The notes beneath the pieces are model-generated. The model had not been told where the DNA came from. It saw nothing but the letters and a program-made list of their open reading frames with translations, and searched no databases. Shown piece after piece: positions 10,184 to 59,472 of a stretch of DNA of 64,000 nucleotides; within the stretch, counting starts at the first letter, position 1; every line of letters starts with the position of its first letter. The position numbers and the translations under genes were made by a program. The DNA lies in contig NZ_CP108938.1 of NCBI RefSeq assembly GCF_036347135.1, positions 6,386,001 to 6,450,000 on the forward strand, read 5' to 3'. This DNA comes from Streptomyces sp. NBC_00775. GTDB lineage: Bacteria; Actinomycetota; Actinomycetes; Streptomycetales; Streptomycetaceae.

Positions 10184-10444
10184 CGCCCCCGCCGCCCCTA
10201 CCCGTCCCATCCTCCAGGGGCTCCGCCCCTTCGACCCCACCGGGTGGTTCGTCGGGTGCGGGTGGGTGGGGGCTGGTCGCGCAGTTCCCCGCGCCCCTCA
10301 AAAGCACCCGGGGCGGGCCGGCGGCATTTTTAGGGGCGCGGGGAACTGCGCGAGCAACCCCCACCGTCCCGCAGTCAACGAACCGGCCCCCGGGGTCTGG
10401 GGCGGAGCCCCTGGAGGATGGGACGGGTAGGGGCGGCGGGGGCG
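10184..10444. repeat. Dispersed palindromic element, copy A (full)
   Basis: A 261-bp composite palindrome. The outer arms 10184-10229 and 10399-10444 are perfect 46-bp inverted repeats. The inner arms 10266-10298 and 10332-10364 are 33 bp with about two mismatches, around the core GCGCAGTTCCCCGCGCCCCT. The copy lies between the divergent DUF2079 and mfd genes. Related copies are at 35.9, 39.0, 43.3, 48.0, 50.5 and 59.2 kb. There is no coding potential. Confidence 0.9.
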
Positions 10445-10487
10445 AAAAAGGCCACGGCGCCCGCGGCCACGGCCTGAACGGCAGGCG

Positions 10488-10496
10488 TTATCCACA
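10488..10496 (+). promoter_or_regulatory. DnaA-box-like site upstream of mfd
   Basis: TTATCCACA, identical to the strongest E. coli DnaA box and one base from the Streptomyces consensus as I recall it (TTGTCCACA). It lies about 104 bases before the mfd start and shares the flanking 14-mer GGCCTGTGGATAAC (reverse strand) with the site before mazG. Binding is an inference. Confidence 0.4.
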
Positions 10497-10599
10497 GGCC
10501 CGGCACGCCGCAGCCGGGCGACGTAGGCTGGGAACCCCCCCGGCCCGTCCCACGTGTCGGGCGGTTCGCGTTGCCCACTCCCCGGGATGGAAGCCCTTC

Positions 10600-13500
10600 A
10601 TGAGCCTGCACGGTCTGCTCGACGCCGTCGTCAAGGACGCCGCCCTCGCGGAAGCGGTGAAGGCCGCCACAGACGGCAACCGTATGCACATCGACCTGGT
10701 CGGCCCCCCCGCGGCCCGCCCCTTCGCGGTGGCGGCCCTGGCCCGGGAGTCCGGCCGCCCCGTACTGGCGGTGACGGCGACAGGCCGCGAGGCCGAGGAC
10801 CTGGCCGCGGCGCTCCGCTCCCTCCTCCCGGAGGAGGGAGTCGTCGATTACCCCTCCTGGGAGACGCTCCCGCACGAGCGGCTGAGCCCGCGCAGCGACA
10901 CCGTCGGCCGCCGCCTCGCCGTCCTGCGCCGCCTGGCACACCCCCGCCCCGACGACCCGGAGACCGGCCCGGTCTCGGTCGTCGTCGCCCCCGTCCGCTC
11001 CGTGCTCCAGCCGCAGGTCAAGGGCCTCGGCGACCTGGAGCCGGTGGCGTTGCGCACGGGTCAGACCGCCGACCTGGGCGAGATCGTCGAGGCGCTCGCG
11101 GCAGCCGCGTACTCCCGGGTCGAGCTCGTCGAGAAGCGCGGCGAGTTCGCGGTCCGCGGCGGCATCCTGGACGTCTTCCCGCCCACCGAGGAGCACCCGC
11201 TGCGCGTGGAGTTCTGGGGCGACGACGTCGAGGAGATCCGTTACTTCAAGGTCGCCGACCAGCGCTCCCTGGAAGTCGCCGAGCACGGCCTGTGGGCGCC
11301 GCCCTGCCGCGAACTGCTGCTCACCGACGACGTACGGCAGCGGGCGGCGCGCCTGGCCGAGGAGCACCCGGAGCTGGGCGAGCTGCTCGGCAAGATCGCC
11401 GAGGGCATCGCCGTAGAGGGAATGGAGTCACTGGCTCCGGTCCTGGTCGACGACATGGAGCTGCTGCTCGATGTGCTGCCCGAGGGCTCCATGGCCGTCG
11501 TGTGCGACCCGGAGCGGGTGCGGACGCGGGCCGCGGACCTGGTGACGACGTCACAGGAGTTCCTCCAGGCGTCCTGGGCGGCCACGGCCGGCGGCGGCGA
11601 GGCACCCATCGACGTGGGCGCGGCCTCCCTGTGGTCCATCGCGGACGTACGGGACCGGGCGCGCGAGCTGGACATGATGTGGTGGTCGGTGTCGCCCTTC
11701 GCCGCCGACGAAGAGCTCGACGCGGACACCCTCAAGCTGGGCATGCACGCCCCCGAGACCTACCGCGGCGACACCGCCCGCGCGCTCGCCGACACCAAGG
11801 GCTGGCTCGCCGACGGCTGGCGCACGGTGTACGTCACCGAGGCGCACGGCCCGGCCGCCCGTACCGTCGAGGTCCTCGGCGGCGAGGGCATCGCGGCCCG
11901 CCTCGAGACCGACCTCGCCGACATCAGCCCCTCCGTCGTGCACGTCTCCTGCGGCTCGATCGACTACGGCTTCGTCGACCCCGCGCTGAAGCTCGCCGTC
12001 CTGACGGAGACCGACCTCTCCGGCCAGAAGGCGGCCGGCAAGGACGGCGCGCGGATGCCCGCCCGCCGCCGCAAGACCATCGACCCGCTGACCCTCGAAG
12101 CGGGCGACTACATCGTGCACGAGCAGCACGGCGTCGGCCGCTACATCGAGATGGTGCAGCGCACGGTCCAGGGCGCCACCCGCGAGTACCTGGTCGTGGA
12201 GTACGCGCCGGCCAAGCGCGGCCAGCCCGGCGACCGCCTCTACATCCCCACCGACCAGCTGGAACAGATCACCAAGTACGTCGGCGGAGAGGCCCCGACC
12301 CTGCACCGCCTGGGCGGCGCCGACTGGACGAAGACCAAGGCGCGCGCCAAGAAGGCGGTCAAGGAGATCGCCGCGGACCTGATCAAGCTGTACAGCGCGC
12401 GCATGGCCGCCCCGGGGCATGCCTTCGGCTCCGACACGCCGTGGCAGCGCGAACTCGAGGACGCCTTCCCTTACGCGGAGACCCCCGACCAGCTGACGAC
12501 GATCGCCGAGGTCAAGGAGGACATGGAGAAGACGGTCCCGATGGACCGCCTGATCTGCGGCGACGTCGGCTACGGCAAGACGGAGATCGCGGTCCGCGCC
12601 GCCTTCAAGGCCGTACAGGACGGAAAGCAGGTCGCCGTCCTCGTCCCCACGACCCTGCTGGTGCAGCAGCACTTCGGGACGTTCGGCGAGCGCTACTCCC
12701 AGTTCCCCGTGAACGTACGGGCGCTGTCCCGCTTCCAGACGGACACGGAGGCGAAGGGGGTCCTGGAGGGCCTGCGCGAAGGCTCGGTGGACGTCGTCAT
12801 CGGCACCCACCGGCTGTTCTCGTCCGAGACGAAGTTCAAGGACCTGGGCCTGGTCATCGTCGACGAGGAGCAGCGCTTCGGAGTCGAGCACAAGGAGCAG
12901 CTGAAGAAGCTGCGCGCCAACGTCGACGTACTGACGATGTCCGCGACCCCGATCCCGCGCACCCTGGAGATGGCGGTGACGGGCATCCGGGAGATGTCCA
13001 CGATCACCACTCCCCCGGAGGAGCGGCACCCGGTACTCACCTTCGTCGGCCCGTACGAGGAGAAGCAGATCGGCGCGGCGATCCGCCGTGAACTGCTGCG
13101 CGAGGGCCAGGTCTTCTACATCCACAACCGCGTCGAGTCCATCGACCGCGCCGCCGCGCGTCTCAGGGAGATCGTCCCGGAGGCACGCATCGCGACGGCG
13201 CACGGCCAGATGGGGGAGTCGGCCCTGGAGCAGGTGGTCGTCGACTTCTGGGAGAAGAGGTTCGACGTGCTCGTCTCCACGACGATCGTCGAGTCGGGCA
13301 TCGACATCTCCAACGCCAACACGCTGATCGTGGAGCGCGGCGACAACTTCGGCCTGTCGCAGCTGCATCAGCTGCGCGGCCGGGTGGGCCGCGGCAGGGA
13401 GCGCGGTTACGCGTACTTCCTGTACCCCCCGGAGAAGCCCCTGACGGAGACGGCACACGAGCGGCTCGCGACCATCGCCCAGCACACGGAGATGGGCGCG

Positions 13501-18989: not shown

Positions 18990-19679
18990 TCAGCCGGTCT
19001 TCTTCCAGTCCCCGCAGCCCGTGGTCTTGAAGTAGCCGTCGCCGGCGCTGATGGTGACGACGGCCGTGCCGGTCACGTTGTTGTTGGCCACGATCGAGTC
19101 CATGGAGTGCGTGGCGTCCTTGTCGCGCTCCCAGTAGCAGGAGTCGTCGGTGTTGCCGGTGGACTTGTAAGTGCCGGGAGCGATGTCCGCGCCCACTCTG
19201 TACATACCGCCGTTGCCCTTGATCTGCGAGGCCGGTGAACCGGACGCCTTCGCGTCGACGGCCTCCCAGTCCTTGCAGCCGCTGGACTTGAAGAGCTTGT
19301 CGCTCGCCTTGATGGTCACGTAACTGGTGCCGCTGACGTTGTCGTTGGCGAGCAGGGAGTCCACCTCGCCCGAGGCGTCCTTGGCGCGCTCCCAGTAGCA
19401 CATGTCGTCGGTGTTGCCCGTGGTCCGGTAGGTGCCGGGCTTGATGTCCGTACCGACCTGGAAGTCGCCGTCCCCCTTGAACGCGACCTTCTTCTCGGCC
19501 TTGTCCGCCTTGCCGCCGGTCTTGGTGTCGGCCTTCTTGCCGGACTCGCGATCGGCGGAGGCGGAGGTGTCCTTGCCCTTGTCGCCGGAACCGCTGTCAC
19601 TGCCGGCGTTCGCCGAGACGACACCGATGACGACCACGCCCACGACGGCCCCCAGCGCGATCTTGCCCTTCATCCCCAT
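18990..19679 (-). CDS. Secreted protein with two tandem Cys-containing domains
   Basis: A 229-residue protein: a signal/anchor helix (KIALGAVVGVVVIGVVSANA), a charged Lys/Ser/Asp linker, then two copies of a domain of about 65 residues (from VGTDIKPGTYRTTGNTDD and VGADIAPGTYKSTGNTDD). Each copy holds CYWER and a second Cys in SSGCKDW or TTGCGDW, so each probably has one disulphide. The domain is common in secreted Streptomyces proteins, but I know no function for it. The start at 19679 follows GGGAGG; the open frame to 19742 is not needed. Confidence 0.75.
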   Translation of the reverse strand: MGMKGKIALGAVVGVVVIGVVSANAGSDSGSGDKGKDTSASADRESGKKADTKTGGKADKAEKKVAFKGDGDFQVGTDIKPGTYRTTGNTDDMCYWERAKDASGEVDSLLANDNVSGTSYVTIKASDKLFKSSGCKDWEAVDAKASGSPASQIKGNGGMYRVGADIAPGTYKSTGNTDDSCYWERDKDATHSMDSIVANNNVTGTAVVTISAGDGYFKTTGCGDWKKTG

Positions 19680-35894: not shown

Positions 35895-35926
35895 GGGCCT
35901 CTCGGCTGTGTGTCGGGTGCGGGCCG

Positions 35927-36048
35927 GTGGGGGCTGGTCGCGCAGTTCCCCGCGCCCCTTAAAAGCACCCGGGGCAGGCCGACGGTTTTTAGGGGCGCGG
36001 GGCTGTGCCTATATGCGGCTCCGCCGCGTGGGCGCGACCAGCCCCCAC
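35927..36048. repeat. Dispersed palindromic element, copy B (inner part)
   Basis: Only the inner palindrome is present: GTGGGGGCTGGTCGCGCAGT at the left and its complement, with a diverged centre (CTATATGCGGCTCCGCCGCG), at the right. The outer 46-bp arms are absent. It lies between the DUF501 and ppx genes. Confidence 0.85.
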
Positions 36049-36108
36049 CCACCCGCAGCCAAAGAACCACCCCCAAGCACCCCCACCCACGACAGGAGAC
36101 CAGAGCTC

Positions 36109-38941: not shown

Positions 38942-38960
38942 CCTCCGGTCACCGTTTTGC

Positions 38961-39010: not shown

Positions 39011-39033
39011 CGCCCCCAGACCCCCGCGCCTTC

Positions 39034-39151
39034 AGGGGCGCGGGGAACTGCGCGAGCAACCCCCACCGTCCCGCGGGCGACACACAACCCAGGGGGGTCT
39101 GGGGGCGCAGCCCCCAGGAACGGGATGGGACGGGTAGGGGCGGCGGGGGCG
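39034..39151. repeat. Dispersed palindromic element, copy C (right half)
   Basis: It contains one inner arm (from AGGGGCGCGGGGAACTGCGC) and one outer arm ending GGGACGGGTAGGGGCGGCGG at the right. The left half is missing, replaced by the ndh terminator. It lies between ndh and cfa. Confidence 0.85.
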
Positions 39152-39273
39152 AAAAACGTGGTGGGTGCATCTATTTTGCGAAGGTGTAACGCGGAAGGGG
39201 GACTGCGCGCGGGACGTGTTGGTGTTTACGTGGTGTTGGAGCGTTCGGGAGTGTTGTCTCGGAGGTGTACGCC

Positions 39274-40563: not shown

Positions 40564-40572
40564 CTGACGTAT

Positions 40573-40624
40573 GTGCGTGAGGAGGGGCCCCGTTCCAGCC
40601 GGAACGGGGCCCCTCCTCACGCAC
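40573..40624. terminator. Bidirectional terminator, 24-bp perfect stem
   Basis: 40573-40596 (GTGCGTGAGGAGGGGCCCCG and four more bases) is perfectly complementary to 40601-40624 with a 4-base loop, between convergent genes. Confidence 0.8.
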
Positions 40625-40653
40625 CACCAAGGCGCCAAGGCGCGTTACTCCGA

Positions 40654-43185: not shown

Positions 43186-43250
43186 TGTTTCTCAGTCCAG
43201 GAGAGGGAGGCTGTCGGCGAGTGGAGGGTGTGGCTGTGCGCGGGTTCTTT

Positions 43251-43453
43251 CGCCCCCGCCGCCCCTACCCGTCCCATCCTTCTGGGGCTCCGCCCCAGAC
43301 CCCGTAGGCCGGTTCGTCGGCTGCGGGCCGGTGGGGGTTGTTCGCGCAGTTCCCCGCGCCCCTAAAAGGGGCGCGGGGAACTGCGCAATCTTTTAGGGGG
43401 TCTGGGGGCGTAGCCCCCAGGAACGGATGGGACGGGTAGGGGCGGCGGGGGCG
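43251..43453. repeat. Dispersed palindromic element, copy D (inside an ABC operon)
   Basis: A 203-bp copy with both outer arms (starting CGCCCCCGCCGCCCCTACCC) and tightly spaced inner arms around GCGCAGTTCCCCGCGCCCCT. It separates the ABC ATPase gene from its permease gene. Confidence 0.9.
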
Positions 43454-43466
43454 AGTTACCCGTGGC

Positions 43467-44237
43467 TCAGCTGGTGCGGCCCTTGGCGTCGAACTGCTTC
43501 ATGCGGTCGAGGACGGAGTCGGCGGTCGGGCCGTAGACCTCGTCGACGATGCGGCCGTCGGCGAGGAAGATCACCCGGTCGGCGTACGCGGCGGCCACCG
43601 GGTCATGGGTCACCATGACCACGGTCTGCCCCAACTCCCGTACGGAGTTGCGCAGGAAGCCGAGCACCTCCGCGCCCGAGCGGGAGTCGAGGTTTCCGGT
43701 GGGCTCGTCGCCGAAGATGATGTCGGGGCGGGAGGCGAGGGCGCGGGCGACGGCGACGCGCTGCTGCTGGCCGCCGGAGAGCTGGGAGGGCCGGTGGCCG
43801 AGGCGGTCGGCGAGGCCGATCATCGTGATGACCTTGTCCAGCCACTCCTTGTCGGGCTTGCGGCCCGCGATGTCCATCGGGAGCGTGATGTTCTCCAGGG
43901 CCGTCAGCGTCGGCAGCAGGTTGAACGCCTGGAAGATGAAGCCGATCTTGTCCCGGCGCAACTTGGTGAGCTGCTTGTCCTTGAGGGAGCCCAGCTCGGT
44001 CTCGCCGATGCGGACGGAGCCGGAGGAGAAGGTGTCCAGGCCCGCCACACAGTGCATCAGCGTGGACTTGCCGGACCCCGACGGGCCCATGATCGCGGTG
44101 AACTCGGCCTGGCGGAAGTCGACGGTGACCCGGTCGAGGGCGACCACCTGGGTCTCGCCCTGTCCATAGACCTTCGACAGTTCCGAGGCGCGGGCTGCCA
44201 CGGCGGTGGTTCGGTCGGCGAGGGGAGTGGTGGTCAC
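43467..44237 (-). CDS. ABC transporter ATPase, FtsX-type exporter (second copy)
   Basis: A 256-residue ATPase with Walker A GPSGSGKS (51-58), signature LSGGQ and Walker B IIFGDE, highly similar to the product of 5198-5986 including the end PTADSVLDRMKQFDAKGRTS. I chose the GTG at 44237 because AGGAG lies 9 bases upstream; the open frame to the ATG at 44297 adds a Ser/Pro-rich stretch without a ribosome binding site. It acts with the downstream permease, from which it is separated by a dispersed repeat. It is divergent from bldA. Confidence 0.9.
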   Translation of the reverse strand: MTTTPLADRTTAVAARASELSKVYGQGETQVVALDRVTVDFRQAEFTAIMGPSGSGKSTLMHCVAGLDTFSSGSVRIGETELGSLKDKQLTKLRRDKIGFIFQAFNLLPTLTALENITLPMDIAGRKPDKEWLDKVITMIGLADRLGHRPSQLSGGQQQRVAVARALASRPDIIFGDEPTGNLDSRSGAEVLGFLRNSVRELGQTVVMVTHDPVAAAYADRVIFLADGRIVDEVYGPTADSVLDRMKQFDAKGRTS

Positions 44238-44639
44238 GGGAGGGTGCTCCTGTCGGGACGACGACGATTTCGGCGATGCTTTCGGGTCGTGTTCCATCGT
44301 CGTCGCCGTTCGGGGCGATGTAGTCAGCCGCTGTTCTGGTTCCGAAGGCAGCCTGCGGTCGGACCGGGAGCGGTCGCGTCATACCTGGGGATGACAGGGC
44401 TTCCCTGAGCGATCTCCGGGTGTTCGGTGTGTTCGGGCCCTGTTCGGACGGTGAAATTCCGTCATTCCGTATACGCCGCCCTGGGGCGTCCGAAAGGCTG
44501 TTGGCAAGTGCGGATGGCCCGTACCGAGGGCTGATGCACCCTCAGACGTCAATAAAATAAGACAACATCGGGCCGCCCGTCCGCTGTTCGGGGGACGCGC
44601 CCCGATAGGCTCGGAACCTCGATGCGGAGCCCATGGCCT
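44238..44639. other. Divergent promoter region of the ABC ATPase and bldA
   Basis: No gene in about 400 bp. It includes the AT-rich AATAAAATAA at about 44550-44560, unusual for this genome, and the candidate bldA promoter GCTGTT-17-TAGGCT ending near 44612. Confidence 0.45.
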
Positions 44640-44722
44640 GCCCGGATGGTGGAATGCAGACACGGCGAGCTTAAACCTCGCTGCCCCTCGCGGGCGTACC
44701 GGTTCAAGTCCGGTTCCGGGCA
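44640..44722 (+). tRNA. bldA: tRNA-Leu(UAA), bldA
   Basis: A complete leucine tRNA. The acceptor stem is GCCCGGA/TCCGGGC with discriminator A, the anticodon arm GCGAG-CTTAAAC-CTCGC has anticodon TAA, there is a long variable arm as in all tRNA-Leu, and the T-arm is CCGGTTCAAGTCCGG. The CCA end is not fully encoded (ACCT follows). UUA is the rarest codon in Streptomyces, and this tRNA, bldA, gates translation of TTA-containing developmental and secondary-metabolism genes. A flavohemoglobin gene in this window contains a TTA codon. A TAGGCT -10-like box lies about 28 bases upstream. Confidence 0.97.
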
Positions 44723-44840
44723 CCTCCGACCCCTCACTTCGGCCGCGGCCTTCCCCGGGGATCTCCCCAGGCCTCTCAAGGACCTCGTCACCGACCGTTG
44801 ACAGCAAGCGCGTGCGGTCGGAGACTCCCTTCAGGAAATG

Positions 44841-44856
44841 GTGAAGGAAATTTCAC
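44841..44856. promoter_or_regulatory. Palindrome before pobA
   Basis: GTGAA-N6-TTCAC, 33 bases before the pobA start, is a candidate operator for an aromatic-responsive regulator. No regulator gene is adjacent. Confidence 0.35.
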
Positions 44857-44889
44857 TACACGAACAGAGGAACGCGAAGGGGCGTGCCG

Positions 44890-46065
44890 ATGCGTACCAC
44901 CGTCGGGATCATCGGGGCCGGGCCGGCCGGGCTGCTGCTGGCGCGGCTGCTGCACAACGCGGGCATCGAGTCCGTCGTGCTGGAGAGCCGGGACCGGGCG
45001 TATGTGGAGCAGCGGCAGCGGGCCGGGATCCTGGAGCAGGGGACCGTGGATGTGCTGCGGGCCGCCGGGGCCGGTGAGCGGATGGACCGGGAGGGGCTGC
45101 GGCACGACGGGATCGAGCTGCGGTTCGCGGGCAGGCGGCACCGCGTCGACTTCCCGGCCCTCACCGGTGGGCGCTCCGTGATGGTGTACGCGCAGACCGA
45201 GGTGTGCAAGGACCTCATCGCCCTCCAGCTCAAGGAGGGCGGGCCGCTGCTCTTCGGGGCCGAGGCGCTCGCCGTGGAGGACGCCGAGAGCGAGCGGCCA
45301 CGGGTGCGGTTCACGTACGACGGACACGAGGATGTGCTGGAGTGCGACTACGTCGTGGGGTGCGACGGGTTCTGGGGCGTCGCGCGGGGGGCCGTGCCCG
45401 CCGAGCTCTCCCGCGTCTTCGAGCGGACGTACCCCTTCGGCTGGCTCGGCATCCTCGCCGATGTCCCGCCCTCGCACGACGAGCTGGTCTACGCCCGTCA
45501 CGACCGCGGCTTCGCCCTGCTCAGCATGCGCTCGCCCAGCGTCTCCCGTCTCTACCTCCAGGTGCCCCAGGGCACGGACGCCCAGGCGTGGAGCGACGAG
45601 GAGATCTGGGACGAGCTGGACCGGCGCTTCGAGACGACGGACGGCTGGCGGCTCGAGCGCGGGCCCATCACCTCCAAGTCCGTCACCCCGATGCGCAGTT
45701 ACGTCCACGAGCCCATGCGGCACGGGCGGGTCTTCCTCGCCGGTGACGCCGCGCACATAGTGCCGCCGACCGGAGCGAAGGGGCTCAACCTCGCCGTCGG
45801 CGACGTCGTCACCTTCGCGCGGGCACTCGCGTACGAGAAGGAGACCGGCTCCGGCGAGCTGCTCGACGCCTACTCCGAGACCTGTCTGCGCCGGGTCTGG
45901 CAGGCCGAGAGGTTCTCGTACGACATGACGACCCTGCTGCACCGCGATCCCGGCGCGACCGGCTTCGAGGACCGCGTCCAGCTGGCCCGTCTGGAGCGGA
46001 TCGCGAGCTCACGGGCGGCCGAGACCGACCTCGCGGAGGGGTACACGGGGTTTCCCCTGGAATAA
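44890..46065 (+). CDS. pobA: 4-hydroxybenzoate 3-monooxygenase
   Basis: A 391-residue FAD-dependent aromatic hydroxylase that converts 4-hydroxybenzoate to protocatechuate, feeding the beta-ketoadipate pathway. It has the FAD GxGxxG motif VGIIGAGPAGLLLARLL at the N-terminus, DG motif YVVGCDGFWGVAR, the substrate-binding block DRGFALLSMRSPSVSRLYLQ (Ser/Arg/Tyr positions as in Pseudomonas PobA), and GDAAHIVPPTGAKGLN. The C-terminal GYTGFPLE holds the second active-site Tyr. AAGGGG precedes the ATG at 44890. No protocatechuate genes are adjacent. Confidence 0.95.
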   Translation: MRTTVGIIGAGPAGLLLARLLHNAGIESVVLESRDRAYVEQRQRAGILEQGTVDVLRAAGAGERMDREGLRHDGIELRFAGRRHRVDFPALTGGRSVMVYAQTEVCKDLIALQLKEGGPLLFGAEALAVEDAESERPRVRFTYDGHEDVLECDYVVGCDGFWGVARGAVPAELSRVFERTYPFGWLGILADVPPSHDELVYARHDRGFALLSMRSPSVSRLYLQVPQGTDAQAWSDEEIWDELDRRFETTDGWRLERGPITSKSVTPMRSYVHEPMRHGRVFLAGDAAHIVPPTGAKGLNLAVGDVVTFARALAYEKETGSGELLDAYSETCLRRVWQAERFSYDMTTLLHRDPGATGFEDRVQLARLERIASSRAAETDLAEGYTGFPLE

Positions 46066-46245
46066 CTCGTGAGAAAAGGAGGCTGAGGCCGGTGTCACGG
46101 CTTCGTACCAGTGCGGGCAGGGCATGGGACACACGCGTACCGTGGCACCGCAAGGGAAAGATCCTCCCCAAGCAGTAGGGTCAATCCTTTGCCTACCTAT
46201 TACTCTTGAGGCCAAGGCCGCGCCAGGTGGCCATGGAGGAGTGAA

Positions 46246-47145
46246 ATGAGGAGCAGTAACCCGGTCTTCTCGCGACGGGGGTTCAGCCGCGACAACGGCT
46301 ACGCGGGCTTCAACGCGGCGCCGCAGGCCGGGGGACCCGCTGTCGGCACCCAGGGCAATCCGTACGCCCAGGGCAACCCGTACGCCCAGCAGGGCGGCAA
46401 CCCCTACGCGCAGAACCCGTACGCACAGCAGGCCCCGCAGTACGGCGCTCCGCCGCAGGCCCCGGTCACCACCGGCCGTATGACGATGGACGACGTCGTC
46501 ATGCGCTCGGCCATGACGCTCGGCACCGTCGCCGTCGGCGCCATCCTGGCCTGGGCGCTGCTGCCGGTGTCCAGCACCAGCTACGGGCTCGCCATCGGCT
46601 CCGCCCTGGTCGCCTTCGTGCTGGCCATGGTGCAGAACTTCAAGCGCACGGCCTCGCCCGCGCTGATCCTCGGCTACGCCGCCTTCGAGGGCGTCTTCCT
46701 CGGGGTCATCAGCGAGATGTACAACAGCCGCTGGTCGGGCGCGCCCTTCCAGGCGGTCCTGGGCACCATGGCGGTCGCCGGCGCGACCCTGCTCGTCTAC
46801 AAGGCGGGCTGGATCCGTGTGACCGCGCGGTACGCGCGCATCGGTATGACCATCGCCATCGCCTTCATCGTCGTCATGGCGGTCAACCTGCTGCTGGTCG
46901 TCTTCGGCGTCGCCGAGGACGGCGGACTGCGCAGCATGGGCCCGCTCGGCGCGATCGTCGGCATCCTGGCGATCCTGATCGGCGCGTTCTTCCTCACCCT
47001 CGACTTCAAGCAGATCGAGGACGGCATCACGTACGGCGCGCCGAAGGACGAGGCCTGGATCGCGGCGTTCGCCCTGACCATGACCCTCGTGTGGATCTAC
47101 ATCGAGATGCTGCGCCTGGTCGCCATCTTCAGCGGCGACGACTAG
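46246..47145 (+). CDS. Bax inhibitor-1/YccA-like membrane protein
   Basis: A 299-residue protein with a hydrophilic N-terminus holding several NPYAQ units (residues about 37-62), then seven transmembrane helices of the Bax1-I type, including LGYAAFEGVFLGVISEMYN and the C-terminal IYIEMLRLVAIFSGDD. Members are thought to be pH-sensitive ion (Ca2+) leak channels. The cytoplasmic repeat tail is an actinobacterial feature. GGAGGA lies before the ATG. A strong hairpin follows. Confidence 0.9.
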   Translation: MRSSNPVFSRRGFSRDNGYAGFNAAPQAGGPAVGTQGNPYAQGNPYAQQGGNPYAQNPYAQQAPQYGAPPQAPVTTGRMTMDDVVMRSAMTLGTVAVGAILAWALLPVSSTSYGLAIGSALVAFVLAMVQNFKRTASPALILGYAAFEGVFLGVISEMYNSRWSGAPFQAVLGTMAVAGATLLVYKAGWIRVTARYARIGMTIAIAFIVVMAVNLLLVVFGVAEDGGLRSMGPLGAIVGILAILIGAFFLTLDFKQIEDGITYGAPKDEAWIAAFALTMTLVWIYIEMLRLVAIFSGDD

Positions 47146-47178
47146 ACGGGCCGGCCCCTGAGGGCTGGTGACTGCACT

Positions 47179-47213
47179 GAAGGGCCCACGAACCACCGGT
47201 TCGCGGGCCCTTT
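47179..47213. terminator. Terminator hairpin
   Basis: AAGGGCCCACGAACC pairs with GGTTCGCGGGCCCTT (one mismatch) around a 3-base loop, followed by TT. It lies between convergent genes. Confidence 0.75.
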
Positions 47214-47249
47214 GCCGTGGGATGCCTGTGTCGTCACGGTGGTGCGCGC

Positions 47250-47480
47250 TCAGAGCAATTTGCGCGCGGCCCTCCTCAGGTCGTACTCGTGAATGATCGC
47301 CTTGGCGTGGCCGTACGCGAGATTGTGCTCGGCGCGAAGCCAGCTGACCTTCTCCTCGAAGCGGAAGAGGGCGGGGCCTTCGTCGACGGTGCGAAGCCAG
47401 TCGGAGATTTCACGACCGGTGCAGTGGGGGATTCGGGCGAGCATGTTGCGGTGGGTCTCCTCGGAGAGGACGTGGGACAT
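47250..47480 (-). CDS. Small DUF4287-type protein
   Basis: A 76-residue protein: MSHVLSEETHRNMLARIPHC, then TGREISDWLRTVDEGPALFR and LRAEHNLAYGHAKAIIHEYD. This matches the short DUF4287 family (helical, soluble, function unknown). GGAGG lies 5 bases before the ATG at 47480, which decides against the longer open frame to 47711. It is divergent from the next small gene. Confidence 0.75.
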   Translation of the reverse strand: MSHVLSEETHRNMLARIPHCTGREISDWLRTVDEGPALFRFEEKVSWLRAEHNLAYGHAKAIIHEYDLRRAARKLL

Positions 47481-47584
47481 CGGCGCCTCCGGACGCAAAG
47501 GGGATGTAAGCCGGTCCTTCACGCCACCGTGCCTGAGGGTTGGGTTGTTGGCAACAGTCCTGGTGCGGCGCGTACGCTCGCCGC

Positions 47585-47896
47585 GTGCTTGATACGACGC
47601 CTTTGACTCGTGCAGTGGATCACTTCGCCGACCGGTTGAGGGCCGCGCCGCAGAGCCGGCTCCAGCGCGGGGCTGCCGCCGAGGCGCTGGGGCTGGCCAG
47701 GGAGTTGGCACTGCGTGCCCAGCGGTTGGAGGACCCTGCCGGAGAGGCTCGGGAGATGCCTGACGCGGGGATGTTCGCCGCCGCGGACCAAATCACCGTT
47801 GCCGCGCACGATTTGGCGGTCGTACTGAAAGACGAGGGGGAACTGGCGGAGGCGGTGGGGCTTGTCGCGGAGGCGCAGAAACGCGCCGGGGTCTGA
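47585..47896 (+). CDS. Small helical hypothetical protein
   Basis: A 103-residue protein rich in Ala, Leu, Arg and Glu (LTRAVDHFADRLRAAPQSRL, then LQRGAAAEALGLARELALRA), probably an all-helical bundle. I do not recognise a family with a known function. The GTG at 47585 lacks an SD; a TACGCT box ends 6 bases upstream, so it is probably leaderless. It follows divergently from the DUF4287 gene, sharing the promoter region. Confidence 0.65.
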   Translation: MLDTTPLTRAVDHFADRLRAAPQSRLQRGAAAEALGLARELALRAQRLEDPAGEAREMPDAGMFAAADQITVAAHDLAVVLKDEGELAEAVGLVAEAQKRAGV

Positions 47897-47971
47897 TCTG
47901 TGGATCCTTCAGATCGACTCCGACGCGGGGTGCTCCGCCGGTGATGCCGGGGAACTGCGGTAGTTGGTTGA

Positions 47972-48022
47972 CTGCGGGCCGGCTGTGGCTGGTCGCGCAG
48001 TTCCCCGCGCCCCTTACGGGGC
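47972..48022. repeat. Dispersed palindromic element, copy E (fragment)
   Basis: Only one inner arm remains (GGCTGGTCGCGCAGTTCCCC GCGCCCCTTA), between the small helical-protein gene and the convergent membrane-anchored protein gene. Confidence 0.75.
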
Positions 48023-48040
48023 GCTCCTGCTGGGCCCTCG

Positions 48041-48835
48041 TTACAGGGACGCGATGACTCGGTCCGCCAGGATGTAGATGTTCTGGTCGCCGTAGGCGAA
48101 CGTCAGGGCGTAGGCGCCGGAGACTCCGGAGCCGCCGAGGAGGACCGGAGTTTCGCCGGCGCGGAGGGCGGCGGCGAGTTGTTCGGCGGTTTCGCGGTGG
48201 CCCGGGGTCATGCAGAGGGTGGTGCCGTCGGCGAAGACGTAGACGTCGAGGGTGCCGAGGGGACCGGGGCGGACGTCCGCCAGTTCCGTGCGGGACTCGG
48301 CGAGTTCCTCCAGGCAGGCCACCGTGCGCTCATGGTCGTTCACGACAGGTGACTGGACCGGTACGAAGTCCGGGTGGGAGGGGTGGCGGCGGCGGGCCGC
48401 GGCAAGTTCGGGGGAGTCCCCGGCGAACTCCTCGGCGTCCAGGCCGGCCTCGGTCACCGGCTCCAGGTGCTCCAGGCCCACGAAGTCCGAGTGGCGCGGC
48501 AGGAACAGTTCGCTGTCGGGCAGGCCGAGCAGCGAGGGCGCGTCCGAGGCGTCACGCGCCTCCTGGGCGGCCCAGAACGCCCGTGCCTCGGCAAGCTCCC
48601 GCTCCCGCTCCTCCGCGAGCGCCTCGGCCACCGCGGCGCGTATCTCGTCCGCGTCGGCGGCCGAGCGAGCCGCGGGCACCAGACCGCGTGCGGCGGTCGT
48701 GGCGCGGCTCTCGGCGAGCTCGGTGTGCAGGGCCGCGACCTGCCGACGCAGACCCCGCAGGGTGCGCAGAACGGCGACGCCCACGGCCGCGGTCGCGGCG
48801 GTGGTGAGCAGCAAAGCAATCGGCATGGCGCTCAC
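48041..48835 (-). CDS. Membrane-anchored coiled-coil hypothetical protein
   Basis: A 264-residue protein with one N-terminal transmembrane helix (MPIALLLTTAATAAVGVAVL), a coiled-coil stretch (LRGLRRQVAALHTELAESRA and EERERELAEARAFWAAQEAR), and a C-terminal globular domain (LDVYVFADGTTLCMTPGHRE, then PVLLGGSGVSGAYALTFAYG). Apparent homologues occur throughout Streptomyces, but no function is known to me. The start is GTG at 48835 with GGGAG 8 bases upstream, or ATG at 48826. Confidence 0.7.
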   Translation of the reverse strand: MSAMPIALLLTTAATAAVGVAVLRTLRGLRRQVAALHTELAESRATTAARGLVPAARSAADADEIRAAVAEALAEERERELAEARAFWAAQEARDASDAPSLLGLPDSELFLPRHSDFVGLEHLEPVTEAGLDAEEFAGDSPELAAARRRHPSHPDFVPVQSPVVNDHERTVACLEELAESRTELADVRPGPLGTLDVYVFADGTTLCMTPGHRETAEQLAAALRAGETPVLLGGSGVSGAYALTFAYGDQNIYILADRVIASL

Positions 48836-49031
48836 TGACGTACTCCCGGTTCAAAGTCGACCCCCGACTTCCTACATCAGCTTGAAGGGAGAACCATCCA
48901 GCTGTCAGTGCGTAACGTCACGAAAAGGACAGGACTTTGGGCCCGGGGTTTAGTTGCGCAATGGCTCTGACCTGCGGAAATGCCTCTCCGGAGGGAGATA
49001 GGTCACATCTTGGGGGGGATTGGATCACAAA

Positions 49032-49070
49032 TCGGCCCAGAGTCCCGGTGGTTGCGGGGCTCTGGGCCGA
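49032..49070. terminator. Terminator after the thiolase gene
   Basis: TCGGCCCAGAG and CTCTGGGCCGA form an 11-bp perfect stem with a structured 17-base loop, just past the thiolase stop (on the reverse strand). Confidence 0.7.
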
Positions 49071-49109
49071 TTCGGTGACGCTGGGTTCAACTCCCGTTAC
49101 GGGAACGGG

Positions 49110-50330
49110 TTAGCTGAGGCGCTCGATGACCATCGCCATGCCCTGGCCGCCGCCGACGCACATCGTCTCCAGGCCGAACTGCTTGTCGTGGAACTGGAGG
49201 CTGTTGATGAGCGTGCCGGTGATGCGGGCGCCGGTCATGCCGAAGGGGTGGCCGACGGCGATGGCGCCACCGTTCACGTTCAGCTTGTCCAGCGGGATGT
49301 TCAGGTCGCGGTAGCTCGGGATCACCTGGGCGGCGAACGCCTCGTTGATCTCGAAGAGGTCGATGTCGTCGACGGTGAGGCCGGCGCGCCTGAGGGCCTG
49401 CTTGCTGGCCTCCACCGGGCCGAGGCCCATGATCTCGGGGGACAGGCCGGTGACGCCGGTGGACACGATCCGGGCGAGCGGGGTGAGGCCGAGCTCGCGG
49501 GCCTTGGTGTCGGACATGATCACGAGGGCGGCGGCGCCGTCGTTCAGCGGGCAGCAGTTGGCGGCCGTGACCATGCCGTCGGGGCGGAAGACGGGCTTGA
49601 GGCCCTGCACGCCCTCCAGGCTGACGCCGGCGCGCGGGCCGTCGTCCTTGGAGACGACCGTGCCGTCCGGGGTCGTGATCGGGGTGATCTCGCGCTCCCA
49701 GAAGCCGTTCTTGATGGCTTCCTCGGCGAGGTTCTGCGAGCGGACGCCGAACTCGTCCATGTCCTGGCGGGTGACGCCCTTCAGGCGGGCCAGGTTCTCG
49801 GCGGTCTGGCCCATCGCGATGTACGCGTCCGGGATCAGGCCGTCCTCGCGCGGGTCGTGCCAGGTGGTGCCCTCCTGCTGCGCGACGGCGACGGTGCGGG
49901 CCTCCGCGTCGGCGAAGAGGGGGTTGTGGGTGTCCGGCATCCCGTCGGAGGTGCCCTTGACGCTGCGCGACACCATCTCGACACCCGCCGAGATGAAGAC
50001 GTCGCCCTCGCCCGCCTTGATGGCGTGCAGGGCCATGCGGCTCGTCTGGAGGGAGGAGGAACAGTAGCGGGTGACGGTGCAGCCCGGGAGGTGGTCCATT
50101 CCCATCTGTACGGCGACGATGCGGGCGAGGTTGTGGCCCTGCTCGCCACCGGGGAGGCCGCAGCCGAGCATCAGGTCGTCGATGTCCCTCGGGTCCAGCT
50201 CGGGGACCTTGGCGAGGGCGGTCTGGATGATCGTGGCGGTCAGGTCGTCGGGGCGCACGTCCTTCAGGGAGCCCTTGAAGGCGCGGCCGATCGGGGAGCG
50301 GGCGGCTGAGACGATCACGGCTTCGGGCAT
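49110..50330 (-). CDS. Acetyl-CoA C-acyltransferase (thiolase)
   Basis: A 406-residue type II thiolase that joins or cleaves acyl-CoA/acetyl-CoA in fatty-acid beta-oxidation. The nucleophile is Cys90 in VTRYCSSSLQ, NEAFAAQ and GGAIAVGHPFGMTGAR carry the Asn and His, and the C-terminal acid/base Cys is in ETMCVGGGQGMAMVIE. No 3-hydroxyacyl-CoA dehydrogenase lies next to it. The ATG at 50330 has GGAG 5 bases upstream. Confidence 0.93.
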   Translation of the reverse strand: MPEAVIVSAARSPIGRAFKGSLKDVRPDDLTATIIQTALAKVPELDPRDIDDLMLGCGLPGGEQGHNLARIVAVQMGMDHLPGCTVTRYCSSSLQTSRMALHAIKAGEGDVFISAGVEMVSRSVKGTSDGMPDTHNPLFADAEARTVAVAQQEGTTWHDPREDGLIPDAYIAMGQTAENLARLKGVTRQDMDEFGVRSQNLAEEAIKNGFWEREITPITTPDGTVVSKDDGPRAGVSLEGVQGLKPVFRPDGMVTAANCCPLNDGAAALVIMSDTKARELGLTPLARIVSTGVTGLSPEIMGLGPVEASKQALRRAGLTVDDIDLFEINEAFAAQVIPSYRDLNIPLDKLNVNGGAIAVGHPFGMTGARITGTLINSLQFHDKQFGLETMCVGGGQGMAMVIERLS

Positions 50331-50453
50331 CACGGCTCCATTGGCGTACGGGGGGTTGGGCAGGGCTGGTTGGGAAGTTACCCGTACGTATGGTCGAGGT
50401 CACGGGTGTCGGGGTGTGACTAGGACCGCACTTTTCTAAGCGCTTGCTTTTTT

Positions 50454-50655
50454 CGCCCCCGCCGCCCCTACCCGTCCCATCCCCAGGGGGCTGCGCCCCC
50501 AGACCCCCCTGGGTGGGTTTTTTGGCTGCGGGCCGGTGGGGGCTGGTCGCGCAGTTCCCCGCGCCCCTTAAAAGCACCCGGCGCGGGGAACTGCGCGACC
50601 AGCCCCCACCGGCCCGCACCCGACACACAACCCCCGGGGTCGAAGGGGCGGAGCC
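50454..50655. repeat. Dispersed palindromic element, copy F (right arm truncated)
   Basis: The left outer arm begins CGCCCCCGCCGCCCCTACCC and the inner arms are intact. The right outer arm stops after GGGGCGGAGCCCCTG, where the SGNH hydrolase gene ends. It fills the 329-bp gap between the thiolase and SGNH hydrolase genes. Confidence 0.85.
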
Positions 50656-50659
50656 CCTG

Positions 50660-51679
50660 TCATGGGGACGGGGCCGGGGCCGGGTCTGTGGCGGGGAGGC
50701 GGCGCCGGCGGCGGCGCTTCAGGAGGGCCCAGGGGCCGCGGGGGCCCGTGGGCATGGCCGCCGTGACCTCCGTGCCGGGCTCCGAGGCGGCCTCCGCTGC
50801 CGCACGGGCGACCGGCAGGAACCCCTCGCGGCGCGAAACGTCCGGGCGCTCCTCCTCGGCCGGCCAGAGACCCAGCGTCGCGCACACCGTGGGGAGGATC
50901 GCCATCGCCGCCGTCGCGTACCCCTCCGCCGAGGGGTGGTAGTTGTCGGGGCCGAACAGTTCGCGTGGGTTCGCCTCGAACTCCGGGCCCAGCAGGTCAC
51001 CCAGCGACACCGTCCGTCCGCCCTGCTCGACCGTACCGATGGTCTGGGCCGCCGCCAGCTGACGCGACGCCCGCCGGGCGAGCCACCGCAGCGGCTGCTG
51101 CACCTGCTCGACCGTGCCCAGGTCGGGACAGGTGCCGACCACGACCTCGGCACCGGCGGTGCGCAGCCGGCGTACGGCCGACGACAGATGGCGCACCGAG
51201 CGCGTCGGCGGCATCCGGTGTGTCACGTCGTTCGCGCCGATCATGATCACGCAGACGTCGGGCACCCGCGTGGTGTCCGCGAGAGCGAGCGCCACCTGGC
51301 GGTCCAGGTCGTCCGACTGGGCCCCCGGCAGCGCCACATTGCACATCTCGACCGGCCGCTCGGCCACCGCCGCGAGCCCGGAGGCCAGCAGCGCCCCCGG
51401 CGTCTGGCGGGCCCGGTGCACGCCCTGGCCCGCCGCCGTGGAGTCACCGAGCATCGTCAGACGGAGGGGCGGTTCGCCGGTACCGGTGTACGCGTACCCG
51501 TACAGGCCGTCCGCGCGCGGCGCGTGCGCGTGCCCGTTGCCCACGTGACGTTTCGCCAGCTGCACCTCGGCCAGCACCAGTCCGACGGTGGCCGCCCCGA
51601 CCAGGCCGATCCCGCCACCGCCGTACGCAGCGCCCGCCGCGATGCGCCGAGCCACCCTCGCCCTCGACAAGCTCGTCAT
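50660..51679 (-). CDS. Membrane-anchored SGNH/GDSL hydrolase
   Basis: A 339-residue protein with an N-terminal transmembrane segment (IGLVGAATVGLVLAEVQL) and an SGNH-hydrolase domain: block I LTMLGDSTAAGQGV, block III MIGANDVTH and block V DNYHPSAEGY (catalytic Asp/His). It should hydrolyse an ester outside the cell or at the membrane face. The C-terminus is very basic (LLKRRRRRRLP). The ATG at 51679 follows GGAGG at a spacing of about 11. It is divergent from cbs. Confidence 0.88.
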   Translation of the reverse strand: MTSLSRARVARRIAAGAAYGGGGIGLVGAATVGLVLAEVQLAKRHVGNGHAHAPRADGLYGYAYTGTGEPPLRLTMLGDSTAAGQGVHRARQTPGALLASGLAAVAERPVEMCNVALPGAQSDDLDRQVALALADTTRVPDVCVIMIGANDVTHRMPPTRSVRHLSSAVRRLRTAGAEVVVGTCPDLGTVEQVQQPLRWLARRASRQLAAAQTIGTVEQGGRTVSLGDLLGPEFEANPRELFGPDNYHPSAEGYATAAMAILPTVCATLGLWPAEEERPDVSRREGFLPVARAAAEAASEPGTEVTAAMPTGPRGPWALLKRRRRRRLPATDPAPAPSP

Positions 51680-58065: not shown

Positions 58066-58105
58066 GTTAACCGCTTCACTTATGCGGTTAACTTAAGCGG
58101 TTAAC
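58066..58105. promoter_or_regulatory. LacI-type operator with three boxes
   Basis: GTTAACCGC at 58066-58074, then GCGGTTAAC at 58084-58092 (together a perfect palindrome with a 9-base spacer), and a second GCGGTTAAC at 58097-58105. It is placed between the divergent amidohydrolase/cysteine dioxygenase genes and the LacI regulator gene, so it is the likely binding site of that regulator. Confidence 0.65.
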
Positions 58106-58194
58106 AAGCCGATCTGTCAACCGTGTGGCCAGGGGCGGGGGGTGGGTGGCGCCGCGTGCCCACAATGCGGACGGGTCCCGGTAGGCTTCCCGGC

Positions 58195-59199
58195 ATGGCC
58201 AGGCCCAACAAGCGCACCACCCTCCGGGAGGTGGCCGAGGCCACGGGCCTCTCCACCGCCGCCGTCTCCTATGCCCTGCGCGGCAAGCACGTCTCGAAGG
58301 AGACCGAGGAGCGGGTACGCAAGGCCGCCGCCGAACTCGGCTACGAGGCCGACCCCATCGCCCGCGCCCTCGCCAGCGGCCGCACCAGCATGGTCGGCGT
58401 CCTCGCGGGCGACCTCCAGGACCTCTGGCAGCAGCAGCTGATGGCCGCCATCGGCCGGGAACTGCTGGCCGGCGACCGCTACGCGCTGATCCTGGACGCG
58501 GGCGGCGACCCCGACCGCGAACTGGTCCTCGCCAAGCAACTGCGCGACCAGCGGGTCGACGCGCTGCTGGTGTCCCCCGTCAACCCCTCGGCGGAGGGCT
58601 GGGCCGCCATCGCCGACGCGCTCCCGGTGGTGGCCGTCGGCGACTCCCTGAGCGCGGCCCGCACGGCCGGACAGGTCATCTTCGACAACAGGGCCGGCAT
58701 CGACGCCGTACTGGAGTACCTCCACGGCCTCGGCCACCGCCGCGTGACCGTACTGACCCCGACCCGCCCCAGCACACCCGACCGCCCCGCCGACGTATAC
58801 GTCCGCGAGGCCGCCGACCGCCTCGGGCTGCGCGCCGAACTCGTCCCCTGCCCCCAGGAGTTGGGCGAGGCGACGGTCGTGGCGCGACGGGTGCTGGACG
58901 GGGCGCGGCCCGCGACCGCCGTCTTCTGCTTCTCCGACTCGCTGGCGTACGGGGTGTACGCCGCCGCCGCCGAGGCCTCGCTGGAAGTGGGCCGCGATGT
59001 CTCCGTGGTCGGCTTCGACGACCACCCGGTGTCGAGGGTGCTTACGCCGCCGTTGACCACGGTCGACTGGGGGCTGGCCGAGATCGCGGCGGAGGCGGCT
59101 CGGTTGACCGTTGCGGCGATCGAGGGGAAGCGGGTGCGGAAGAAGCGGATTCTCTGTGCGCCTCGGATGAGTGAGCGGGGCTCGGCTGTGCGGGTGTAG
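58195..59199 (+). CDS. LacI family regulator
   Basis: A 334-residue LacI-type repressor with an N-terminal HTH (TLREVAEATGLSTAAVSYAL), a hinge helix (ALASGRTSMVGVLAGD region) and a ribose-binding-like ligand domain (FCFSDSLAYGVYAAAAEASL, VVGFDDHPVSRVLTPPLTTV). The ATG at 58195 directly follows the promoter box TAGGCT by 7 bases, so it is probably leaderless. It likely controls the divergent cysteine dioxygenase operon through the triple operator. The effector is unknown. Confidence 0.92.
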   Translation: MARPNKRTTLREVAEATGLSTAAVSYALRGKHVSKETEERVRKAAAELGYEADPIARALASGRTSMVGVLAGDLQDLWQQQLMAAIGRELLAGDRYALILDAGGDPDRELVLAKQLRDQRVDALLVSPVNPSAEGWAAIADALPVVAVGDSLSAARTAGQVIFDNRAGIDAVLEYLHGLGHRRVTVLTPTRPSTPDRPADVYVREAADRLGLRAELVPCPQELGEATVVARRVLDGARPATAVFCFSDSLAYGVYAAAAEASLEVGRDVSVVGFDDHPVSRVLTPPLTTVDWGLAEIAAEAARLTVAAIEGKRVRKKRILCAPRMSERGSAVRV

Positions 59200-59214
59200 C
59201 CCTGAGGGGTTCCT

Positions 59215-59472
59215 CGCCCCCGCCGCCCCTACCCGTCCCATCCTCCAGGGGCTCCGCCCCTTCGACCCCACCGGGTTGTTCGCCGGCCGTGGGCCGGTGG
59301 GGGTTGCTCGCGCAGTTCCCCGCGCCCCTGAAACAACCCGGGGCGCAGCGCCATGCCTTTAGGGGCGCGGGGAACTGCGCGACCAGCCCCACCCACCCGC
59401 ACCCGAAATACAACCGAACGGGGTCTGGGGCGGAGCCCCTGGAGGATGGGACGGGTAGGGGCGGCGGGGGCG
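59215..59472. repeat. Dispersed palindromic element, copy G (full)
   Basis: A 258-bp full copy: outer arms identical to those of copy A (CGCCCCCGCCGCCCCTACCC at both ends in inverted orientation) and inner arms around GCGCAGTTCCCCGCGCCCCT. It lies between the convergent LacI and OpuC binding-protein genes. Confidence 0.9.

What the first reader, a model, noticed from the sequence alone, without database searches (positions are those of the whole stretch)
10184..59472. Dispersed, highly palindromic intergenic element in seven copies
Copies at 10184-10444, 35927-36048, 39034-39151, 43251-43453, 47972-48022, 50454-50655 and 59215-59472. Full copies have perfect outer inverted repeats of about 46 bp and inner inverted repeats of about 33 bp, so nearly the whole element could form one hairpin in DNA or RNA. 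All copies are between genes; partial copies lack whole arms, as if modular or decaying. Seven copies in 64 kb suggests hundreds per chromosome. I recall the core GCGCAGTTCCCCGCGCCCCT from other Streptomyces intergenic regions but know no named family or function. It could be a MITE-like element, a structured bidirectional terminator, or a chromosome-organising site.
Basis: seen in the sequence. Interest (0 to 1): 0.75.

Follow-up and report, generated by a model that had tools for sequence, protein, structure and literature searches.

The report
Mosaic palindromic repeat family of Streptomyces
Hundreds of small hairpin-forming DNA pieces, built from interchangeable modules, sit mostly just after the ends of genes in this Streptomyces chromosome; they belong to a Streptomyces repeat family for which we found no name, and their contents differ at the same sites from species to species.

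Summary
The core 20-mer occurs exactly 10 times in the window (0.07 expected even at 3 mismatches), 487 times in the genome (reversed control 0), in 236 of 392 sampled Streptomyces, own included, at 0-886 copies; its 19-mer is in 0 of 238 genomes of other genera. It is a modular repeat family, not one palindrome: outer cap O, hairpin M, arms P/Q, core C, alternative inner hairpin S. Modules vary independently between genomes (728 cores with no O; 81 cores with 198 O). Units keep one polarity (0 of 93 neighbouring pairs reversed), yet the two arms of a copy do not co-vary (p 0.66). In the chromosome core 53 of 55 clusters lie at gene 3' ends. T-tract arms and solo units show no orientation preference, which argues against selection as terminators. 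Against a relative about 90% identical, 21 of 23 usable shared sites hold different modules. Best reading: a REP/BIME-like, largely selfish mosaic repeat whose modules are exchanged at inherited 3'-end sites; effects on 3' UTRs are by-products. No necessary mobiliser was found.

The parts
10184..10444 (.). Complete copy: O cap left, M-type hairpin, P arm, core + (10279-10298), long loop, core - (10332-10351), P arm, M-type hairpin, O cap right; between a DUF2079 gene (-) and mfd (+), a divergent gap
35915..36060 (.). Copy without O caps: P arm, core + (35940-35959), right half with a variant core in which AACT is replaced by 29 nt (36003-36031); between DUF501 and Ppx/GppA genes (tandem, ++)
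39011..39151 (-). Right half with an M remnant on its left: core - (39034-39053), P arm, M hairpin, O cap; directly behind an intact native terminator-like hairpin of the upstream oxidoreductase gene (tandem, ++)
43251..43453 (.). Complete copy with perfect 20-bp core hairpin (43344-43363 / 43367-43386), P arm on the left, Q arm (AATCTTTT) on the right; between an ABC-ATPase gene and an FtsX-type permease gene (tandem, --)
47972..48025 (+). Solo unit: core + (47995-48014) with the 7-bp hairpin GCGCCCC-TTAC-GGGGCGC; 3' of the 264-aa ORF 48041-48835 (-). A core-bearing unit lies within 130 nt behind the same gene in 7 of 66 related loci
50454..50655 (.). Copy with O cap on the left only: M, P arm, core + (50549-50568), core - (50577-50596, 3 mismatches), P arm, M-type hairpin; between thiolase and GDSL-lipase genes (tandem, --)
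59215..59472 (.). Complete copy: O, M-type, P arm, core + (59310-59329), core - (59361-59380), P arm, M-type, O; between convergent LacI-type and OpuAC-type genes

Best explanation
It is a Streptomyces family of mosaic extragenic palindromes, REP/BIME-like in behaviour. The basic piece is a directional half-unit (centre, then core AGGGGCGCGGGGAACTGCGC, arm P or Q, hairpin M, cap O). Half-units occur alone, in tandem, or face to face with the CGCCCCT end at the centre; none of 93 neighbouring pairs is back to back (shown). Copies settle, or survive, mostly shortly downstream of stop codons (shown: 32 of 53 stop-facing O ends lie 0-28 nt behind the stop). An occupied site tends to be inherited, but its modules are replaced over time by the versions common in that lineage, most simply by recombination or gene-conversion-like template switching between copies (content differences shown; mechanism inferred). 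The elements are mostly selfish or neutral passengers tolerated at 3' ends and add very stable structure to 3' UTRs as a by-product (inferred). How new sites are first occupied is unknown.
For: Copy number 0-886 across one genus with independently varying modules. No match in 238 genomes of other genera, in phage records or, exactly, in viral contigs; only partial hits in 9 Streptomyces plasmids. 53 of 55 core-region clusters at 3' ends: 22 convergent, 31 tandem, 2 divergent, against 53, 256 and 143 for element-free gaps of 100 nt or more (Fisher p about 1e-6 for the convergent excess and for the divergent lack). Occupancy per 3' end is similar in convergent (22 of 154 junctions, two ends each) and tandem gaps (31 of 534, one end), as expected for tolerance at any 3' end. 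Fixed polarity 0 of 93. Arms uncoupled. Orthologous sites often share position and outer cap but differ inside. Species-specific base in O: own G 41 of 41, relative T 20 of 23; at 10 orthologous caps own G 10 of 10, relative T 8 of 10. Units gained or lost between species 93-95% identical.
Against: No event between near-identical strains was seen; the closest comparisons are different species. Of the 10 orthologous caps only a1-27 and a1-28 have practically the same flank next to the cap in both species, a1-11 and a1-13 similar ones; the others differ, so repeated independent insertion near the same gene end could give the same picture. Gene conversion is inferred only. Mirrored core substitutions, expected from selection on pairing, do occur in other species (3 of 8 in named loci, 1 of 3 in G040; 0 of 7 in own). 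A hairpin can act on transcription from both sides, so lack of orientation bias does not exclude a termination role.
Confidence: 0.6

Rival explanations
1. Functional bidirectional terminators or mRNA 3'-end stabilisers: the hairpins are kept because they end or protect transcripts of the flanking genes.
For: 3'-end location and closeness to stop codons; extreme stability; the Q form AAAAGATTGCGCAG...CTGCGCAATCTTTT has A-tract/stem/T-tract architecture, and 43344-43386 is the strongest terminator-like call in 35000-51000 (20 pairs); Streptomyces clavuligerus Term-seq reports many highly structured 3' ends lacking U-tracts and bidirectional 3' ends (passages of PMC8269248).
Against: T-tract arms: 11 sense and 12 antisense in tandem gaps. 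Solo units: 24 in the direction of the nearest gene end, 23 against it. Terminator-like calls in 35000-51000 are 8 against 5.1 (sd 2.2) in shuffles; four lie in copies, three of these weak. Native terminator-like hairpins persist beside elements in three loci seen by eye, not counted systematically (site B; a1-33 and a1-38). Projected gaps are 0 nt or overlapping in 32 of 78 (site C) and 2 nt in 12 of 74 (site A) related loci. No arm coupling.
Confidence: 0.25
2. Classical MITE family: O/M are terminal inverted repeats recognised by an IS transposase in trans.
For: Outer inverted repeats of 47-60 nt in the window's complete copies, size 140-375 nt in 27 complete copies, burst-like copy numbers, presence/absence at orthologous sites. 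Y1 transposases are commoner in high-copy than in zero-copy genomes, 14 of 26 and 2 of 25, p 0.0006, though high-copy genomes are also larger (9.5 and 8.2 Mb). Weak excess of shared 3-5 nt words at the two ends (p 0.07-0.10).
Against: No clear target duplication (flank test with the 5 nt next to each end left out, p 0.24; with them included, no word length reaches p 0.05). Genomes with hundreds of cores have no exact O cap (728/0, 656/0, 438/0, 379/0). Y1 absent from 12 of 26 high-copy genomes, including single-contig G109 and G207; IS110 absent from 3 of 22 and reverse transcriptase from 12 of 22. None of 10 Y1 loci fetched is flanked on both sides by modules. No facing O pair 700-4000 nt apart in 1.744 Mb of own and 0.64 Mb of G040 sequence.
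Confidence: 0.12
3. Chromosome-organising or protein-binding site (nucleoid protein, gyrase or similar, as proposed for E. coli BIMEs; recalled).
For: Uneven distribution: in sampled tiles 56 clusters in 1.124 Mb between 2.9 and 8.9 Mb, 2 in 540 kb outside (limits set after seeing the data); fixed polarity; conserved core.
Against: The tiles overstate the depletion: one search lists 52 exact cores before 2.9 Mb (18 per Mb against 44 per Mb overall), none before 0.59 Mb. Exact core absent from 156 of 392 Streptomyces; contents not conserved at sites. Fewer copies in the arms could reflect their younger gene content (inference).
Confidence: 0.03

Closest known systems
REP / BIME (bacterial interspersed mosaic elements) of enterobacteria and pseudomonads
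   Same: High copy, palindromic, extragenic, mosaic clusters; location at gene 3' ends and rarity in divergent gaps (the E. coli side of this comparison is recalled)
   Different: Different sequence; several layered modules; one relative polarity only (0 of 93 reversed), whereas in BIMEs REPs alternate in orientation (abstract start of PMC2817692 in the listings). A GTAG/CGTC foot was not tested systematically
REPINs with RAYT transposases (PMC3116915; start of abstract seen in listings)
   Same: Inverted pair of units with fixed polarity, singlets, within-genome populations (features of REPINs partly recalled)
   Different: Y1 transposase absent from 12 of 26 high-copy genomes; additional exchangeable modules; arms not coupled
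MITEs
   Same: Long terminal inverted repeats, complete copies of 140-375 nt
   Different: No clear target duplication, no parent transposase found, caps dispensable
Streptomyces intrinsic or U-lacking hairpin terminators (passages of PMC8269248)
   Same: GC-rich hairpins at 3' ends
   Different: Dispersed repeat with shared sequence, orientation-indifferent, absent from many species

Membership tests
REP/BIME | High-copy extragenic palindromic units | tested here: met
   487 exact cores; 53 of 55 clusters at 3' ends; inverted repeats in 6 of 7 window copies
REP/BIME | Mosaic clusters with units in alternating orientations | tested here: not met
   Mosaic yes, but 0 of 93 neighbouring pairs are in the reversed (-+) arrangement
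REPIN/RAYT | RAYT-type Y1 transposase in genomes with many copies | tested here: not met
   Y1 (PF01797) absent from 12 of 26 high-copy genomes, some of them drafts; still commoner than in zero-copy genomes, 14/26 and 2/25
REPIN/RAYT | Inverted pair of units with fixed polarity | tested here: met
   Two-unit clusters of mixed orientation: 37 '+-', 0 '-+'
MITE | Terminal inverted repeats | tested here: met
   Outer repeats of 51 nt (98%), 47 nt (83%) and 60 nt (92%) in the three complete window copies
MITE | Target-site duplication | tested here: inconclusive
   27 copies: direct-repeat score 11.15 and 10.82 permuted, p 0.24, inner 5 nt left out; with ends included, 3-5 nt words p 0.07-0.10, one copy at 6 nt, none at 8 or 9
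MITE | Related autonomous transposon | tested here: inconclusive
   No facing O pair 700-4000 nt apart in 1.744 Mb own and 0.64 Mb G040; whole genome not available as a file
Intrinsic terminator | Hairpin followed by U-tract in the sense direction | tested here: inconclusive
   Q arms only; 11 sense, 12 antisense in tandem gaps, 13 in convergent gaps
Intrinsic terminator | RNA 3' ends at the hairpin | not testable with these tools
   needs Term-seq or RNA-seq
Any Rfam family | Match above gathering score | tested here: not met
   None at the copies (whole window); at 43200-43500 the best sub-threshold hit has 31.5 bits against a cut-off of 79

The most novel reading that the evidence does not exclude
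A population of DNA hairpin modules that spreads and renews itself without a dedicated transposase: sites at gene 3' ends are inherited, while their contents (whole inner hairpins, arms, even orientation) are overwritten by the locally dominant modules through hairpin-templated strand switching or gene conversion, so that each Streptomyces lineage runs its own set in the same sites.
Probability: 0.3. Interest if true: 0.75.

Novelty: new variant of a known kind. Interest (0 to 1): 0.55.

Why it matters
Streptomyces are the main antibiotic producers, yet this repeat family, with hundreds of copies in some species, has no name that I could find. If the reading is right, REP-like repeats reach about 200-900 cores in genomes with no detectable Y1/RAYT transposase, very stable hairpins stand behind many genes (relevant for 3' UTRs, gene-cluster engineering and genome assembly), and the family offers a natural system for measuring concerted evolution of dispersed palindromes in bacteria.

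Tried and rejected
Strand bias: the listing seemed to show only + hits beyond 3.2 Mb; fetching that region showed both strands, so it was a listing cap. Compensatory change in the hairpin: no coupling in own (37 pairs, p 0.66), G040 (5 pairs, p 0.81) or the 80 named plus 4 further loci (15 pairs, p 0.38); core substitutions mirrored in 0 of 7, 1 of 3 and 3 of 8. Insertion into loops of host hairpins: flank inverted similarity p 0.07, not accepted, although copy 1 lies in such a host inverted repeat (I3). Y1, reverse transcriptase and IS110 as necessary movers: not universal. Rfam: nothing above threshold. Literature: strings from the core, O, M and S modules not found; topic searches showed no Streptomyces repeat family in the 10-20 papers listed of each. 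I saw listings with abstract starts, and passages of PMC8269248, PMC3733652, PMC1590033, PMC11109978, PMC11678152 and PMC1525189; no paper was read whole. G-quadruplex potential of the O cap was noticed but not tested. One search scored only 147 of 384 genomes; the closest relative (G040) was chosen among those. One search gave 26 sites, 4 identical and 22 different; two of the identical ones (a1-14, a2-9) are chance matches and two rows (a1-4, a1-5) overlap, which leaves 23 sites, 2 identical (both solo units) and 21 different; motifs were called loosely, so some differences may be threshold effects. The cluster at 10149219 overlaps a called gene and is probably chance. Tile counts overstated the depletion in the chromosome arms; one search corrects it.
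Full report
Observation. The core GCGCAGTTCCCCGCGCCCCT gives 12 hits at up to 3 mismatches in the window, 10 of them exact, against 0.07 expected; one of the 12 (56131) is a chance match inside a gene. Direct-repeat families D1-D4, D6 and D7 recover the copies and their arms. Copy 1 (10184-10444) has a 51-nt outer inverted repeat at 98% and a 71-nt inner one at 82%; copy 59215 has 60 nt at 92% and 33 nt at 91%; the 47972 copy has none. Copy 1 as RNA folds at -260.3 kcal/mol, z -20, 0 of 200 shuffles as stable.

Extent. The window lies at 6.386-6.450 Mb of an 11.10-Mb single-contig genome with 487 exact cores, 236 forward and 251 reverse, reversed control 0. In 392 sampled Streptomyces genomes, own included, 236 have at least one exact core; numbers run from 0 to 886. 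In a phylum-wide sample of 246 the 19-mer core is in 6, all among the 8 Streptomyces drawn (own included), and in 0 of 238 genomes of other genera. There is no match in phage records, no exact match in viral contigs, and partial matches in 9 Streptomyces plasmids. In 1.664 Mb of own sequence I found 58 clusters, reversed control 0 for every motif; 56 lie in 1.124 Mb between 2.9 and 8.9 Mb and 2 in 540 kb outside. The tiles overstate this contrast: one search lists 52 exact cores before 2.9 Mb (18 per Mb, against 44 per Mb overall), none before 0.59 Mb.

Anatomy. Copies are built from modules. O is a cap, CGCCCCC[G/T]CCGCCCCT[A/G]CCCGTCCC, preceded outside by a T-rich stretch (72 ends). M is a small self-complementary hairpin such as CTGGGGGCTGCGCCCCCAG with relatives. 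P is a G-rich arm reading GCGGG..GGTGGGGGCTGGTCG towards the core; Q is an arm with AAAAGATTG. C is the core; loops vary and may carry their own hairpin. Solo units consist of the core, a short hairpin and a tail. In other species the O/M frame holds a different inner hairpin S, CGTCCTCAAACGCCGGACGGGC. Module numbers are independent between genomes: G059 has 728 cores and 0 O, G297 656 and 0, G300 438 and 0, while G267 has 81 cores and 198 O, and the own genome 487 and 254 (exact patterns).

Two rules. First, polarity: of 93 neighbouring core pairs within 250 nt in own, G040 and 84 further loci, 49 are '+-', 33 '--', 11 '++' and none '-+'. Second, independence of the arms: in 37 own '+-' pairs the two 60-nt arms outside the core are 0.553 identical within a copy and 0.565 between copies, permutation p 0.66; G040 (5 pairs) and the other loci (15 pairs) give p 0.81 and 0.38. 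The complete element is therefore a meeting of two independent half-units, not a hairpin whose two strands evolve together. Core substitutions are mirrored in 0 of 7 cases in own, 1 of 3 in G040 and 3 of 8 in the other loci, so correction or selection on pairing may act in some lineages.

Place relative to genes. Gene positions come from my own GC-frame script; 17 ORFs of the window beside copies were compared with Pfam, 15 with a family. In the 2.9-9.0 Mb region, element-bearing gaps are 31 tandem, 22 convergent and 2 divergent; element-free gaps of 100 nt or more are 256, 53 and 143, p about 1e-6 for the convergent excess and for the divergent lack. Counted per gene 3' end, convergent (22 of 154 junctions, two ends) and tandem gaps (31 of 534, one end) are similarly occupied. 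In own and G040 together O ends face a 3' end 53 times and a 5' end 22 times; the median distance is 19 nt to the stop codon (32 of 53 lie at 0-28 nt) and 113 nt to the start codon. The picture is tolerance or targeting at 3' ends with avoidance of promoters; the window's copy 1, in a divergent gap, is an exception.

Terminator test. If copies were kept to end the upstream transcript, arms with a T-tract should face the sense direction: they do so 11 times and fail 12 times in tandem gaps. Solo units lie in the direction of the nearest 3' end 24 times and against it 23 times (these include a few chance matches). In 35000-51000 the terminator scan gives 8 calls (shuffles 5.1, sd 2.2); four lie in copies, and the only strong one (43344-43386, + strand, 20 pairs) is antisense to both neighbouring genes. 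In three loci seen by eye a native terminator-like hairpin persists beside the element (site B; a1-33 and a1-38). In the window, elements separate DUF501 from Ppx/GppA and an ABC ATPase from an FtsX-type permease, whose projected gaps are 2 nt in 12 of 74 and 0 nt or overlapping in 32 of 78 related loci. A bidirectional effect on transcription is not excluded.

Turnover. At four orthologous gaps in the 80 named Streptomyces loci, cores are present in 6 of 74, 3 of 69, 6 of 78 and 7 of 53, and in 0 of 80 in a short convergent gap. Against G040 (90% identical over the compared stretch), 46 of 51 own clusters had an orthologous region; 23 carried a core or O there and 23 did not. Counting S as well, modules are present on both sides at 26 sites, 4 with the same module string and 22 with different ones; without two chance matches and one doubled region, 23 sites remain, 2 the same (both solo units) and 21 different, including swaps of the core pair for S and inverted inner units beside the same cap. 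The O cap has G at its variable base in 41 of 41 own copies and T in 20 of 23 G040 copies; at 10 orthologous caps own is G 10 times and G040 T 8 times. Next to the cap the flank is practically the same in both species at a1-27 and a1-28 and similar at a1-11 and a1-13, but different at the others. So some sites are clearly inherited with changed contents; for others a second insertion nearby is possible. In pairs 93-95% identical, L149 has a 78-nt solo unit between two converging stop codons that are 4 nt apart in L168, and L124 has a 93-nt unit that L122 lacks.

Mobiliser. Y1 transposases are absent from 12 of 26 high-copy genomes, among them G364 (886 cores) and the single-contig G109 and G207; they are nevertheless commoner there than in zero-copy genomes (14 of 26 and 2 of 25, p 0.0006), and the high-copy genomes are larger. 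Reverse transcriptase is present in 10 of 22 and IS110 in 19 of 22 high-copy genomes. No Y1 locus of the 10 fetched is flanked on both sides by modules. Flanks of 27 complete copies show no direct repeat when the 5 nt next to each end are left out (p 0.24) and a weak inverted trend (p 0.07); with the ends included, shared words of 3-5 nt give p 0.07-0.10 and longer ones nothing. No facing O pair 700-4000 nt apart was found in 1.744 Mb of own and 0.64 Mb of G040 sequence.

Interpretation. The evidence fits a REP/BIME-like mosaic repeat population. Shown: modularity, polarity, independence of arms, 3'-end location, variable copy number, changed contents at orthologous sites. Inferred: gene-conversion-like exchange, and a mainly selfish or neutral nature with structural effects on 3' UTRs. 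Unknown: how new sites are occupied. I do not file it under REPIN/RAYT (a tested feature fails), BIME proper (no alternating orientation) or MITE (target duplication and parent element unproven), though it behaves like them in part. I found no paper naming it; the library holds open-access papers only.

Noticed in passing
window 32119-32298 (+): c-di-AMP (ydaO/yuaA) riboswitch, 61 bits, just upstream of a 231-aa ORF at 32303.
   Followed up: no
window 35247-35351: Three tandem copies of a 35-bp unit, directly before the DUF501 gene called at 35370 (family D12).
   Followed up: no
window 27629-27774: Two adjacent 73-bp copies at 93% (family D10).
   Followed up: no
window 19002-19457: Two 195-nt copies at 73%, 261 nt apart start to start, inside one called gene.
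   Followed up: no
L177, L181, L159, L145 behind the 264-aa gene; window 36003-36031: A core variant in which AACT is replaced by about 30 nt with GCGGCTCCGCCGC; L194 and L177 have the two versions at the same site with a similar downstream flank.
   Followed up: partly
G107:C1:1462504-1462902; G309:C80:13300-13669: Tandem arrays of the core at about 78-nt and 70-nt spacing in other Streptomyces.
   Followed up: no
O cap, e.g. window 10184-10208: The cap's G-rich strand GGGACGGGTAGGGGCGGCGGGGGCG fits a G-quadruplex pattern; C-run positions are nearly invariant over 72 ends, but so are some spacer bases.
   Followed up: partly
L139 and L175, gap between thiolase and GDSL genes: A further palindromic sequence, CCTATGCCCACCCACCACCCG..., occurs beside the same frame modules.
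   Followed up: no
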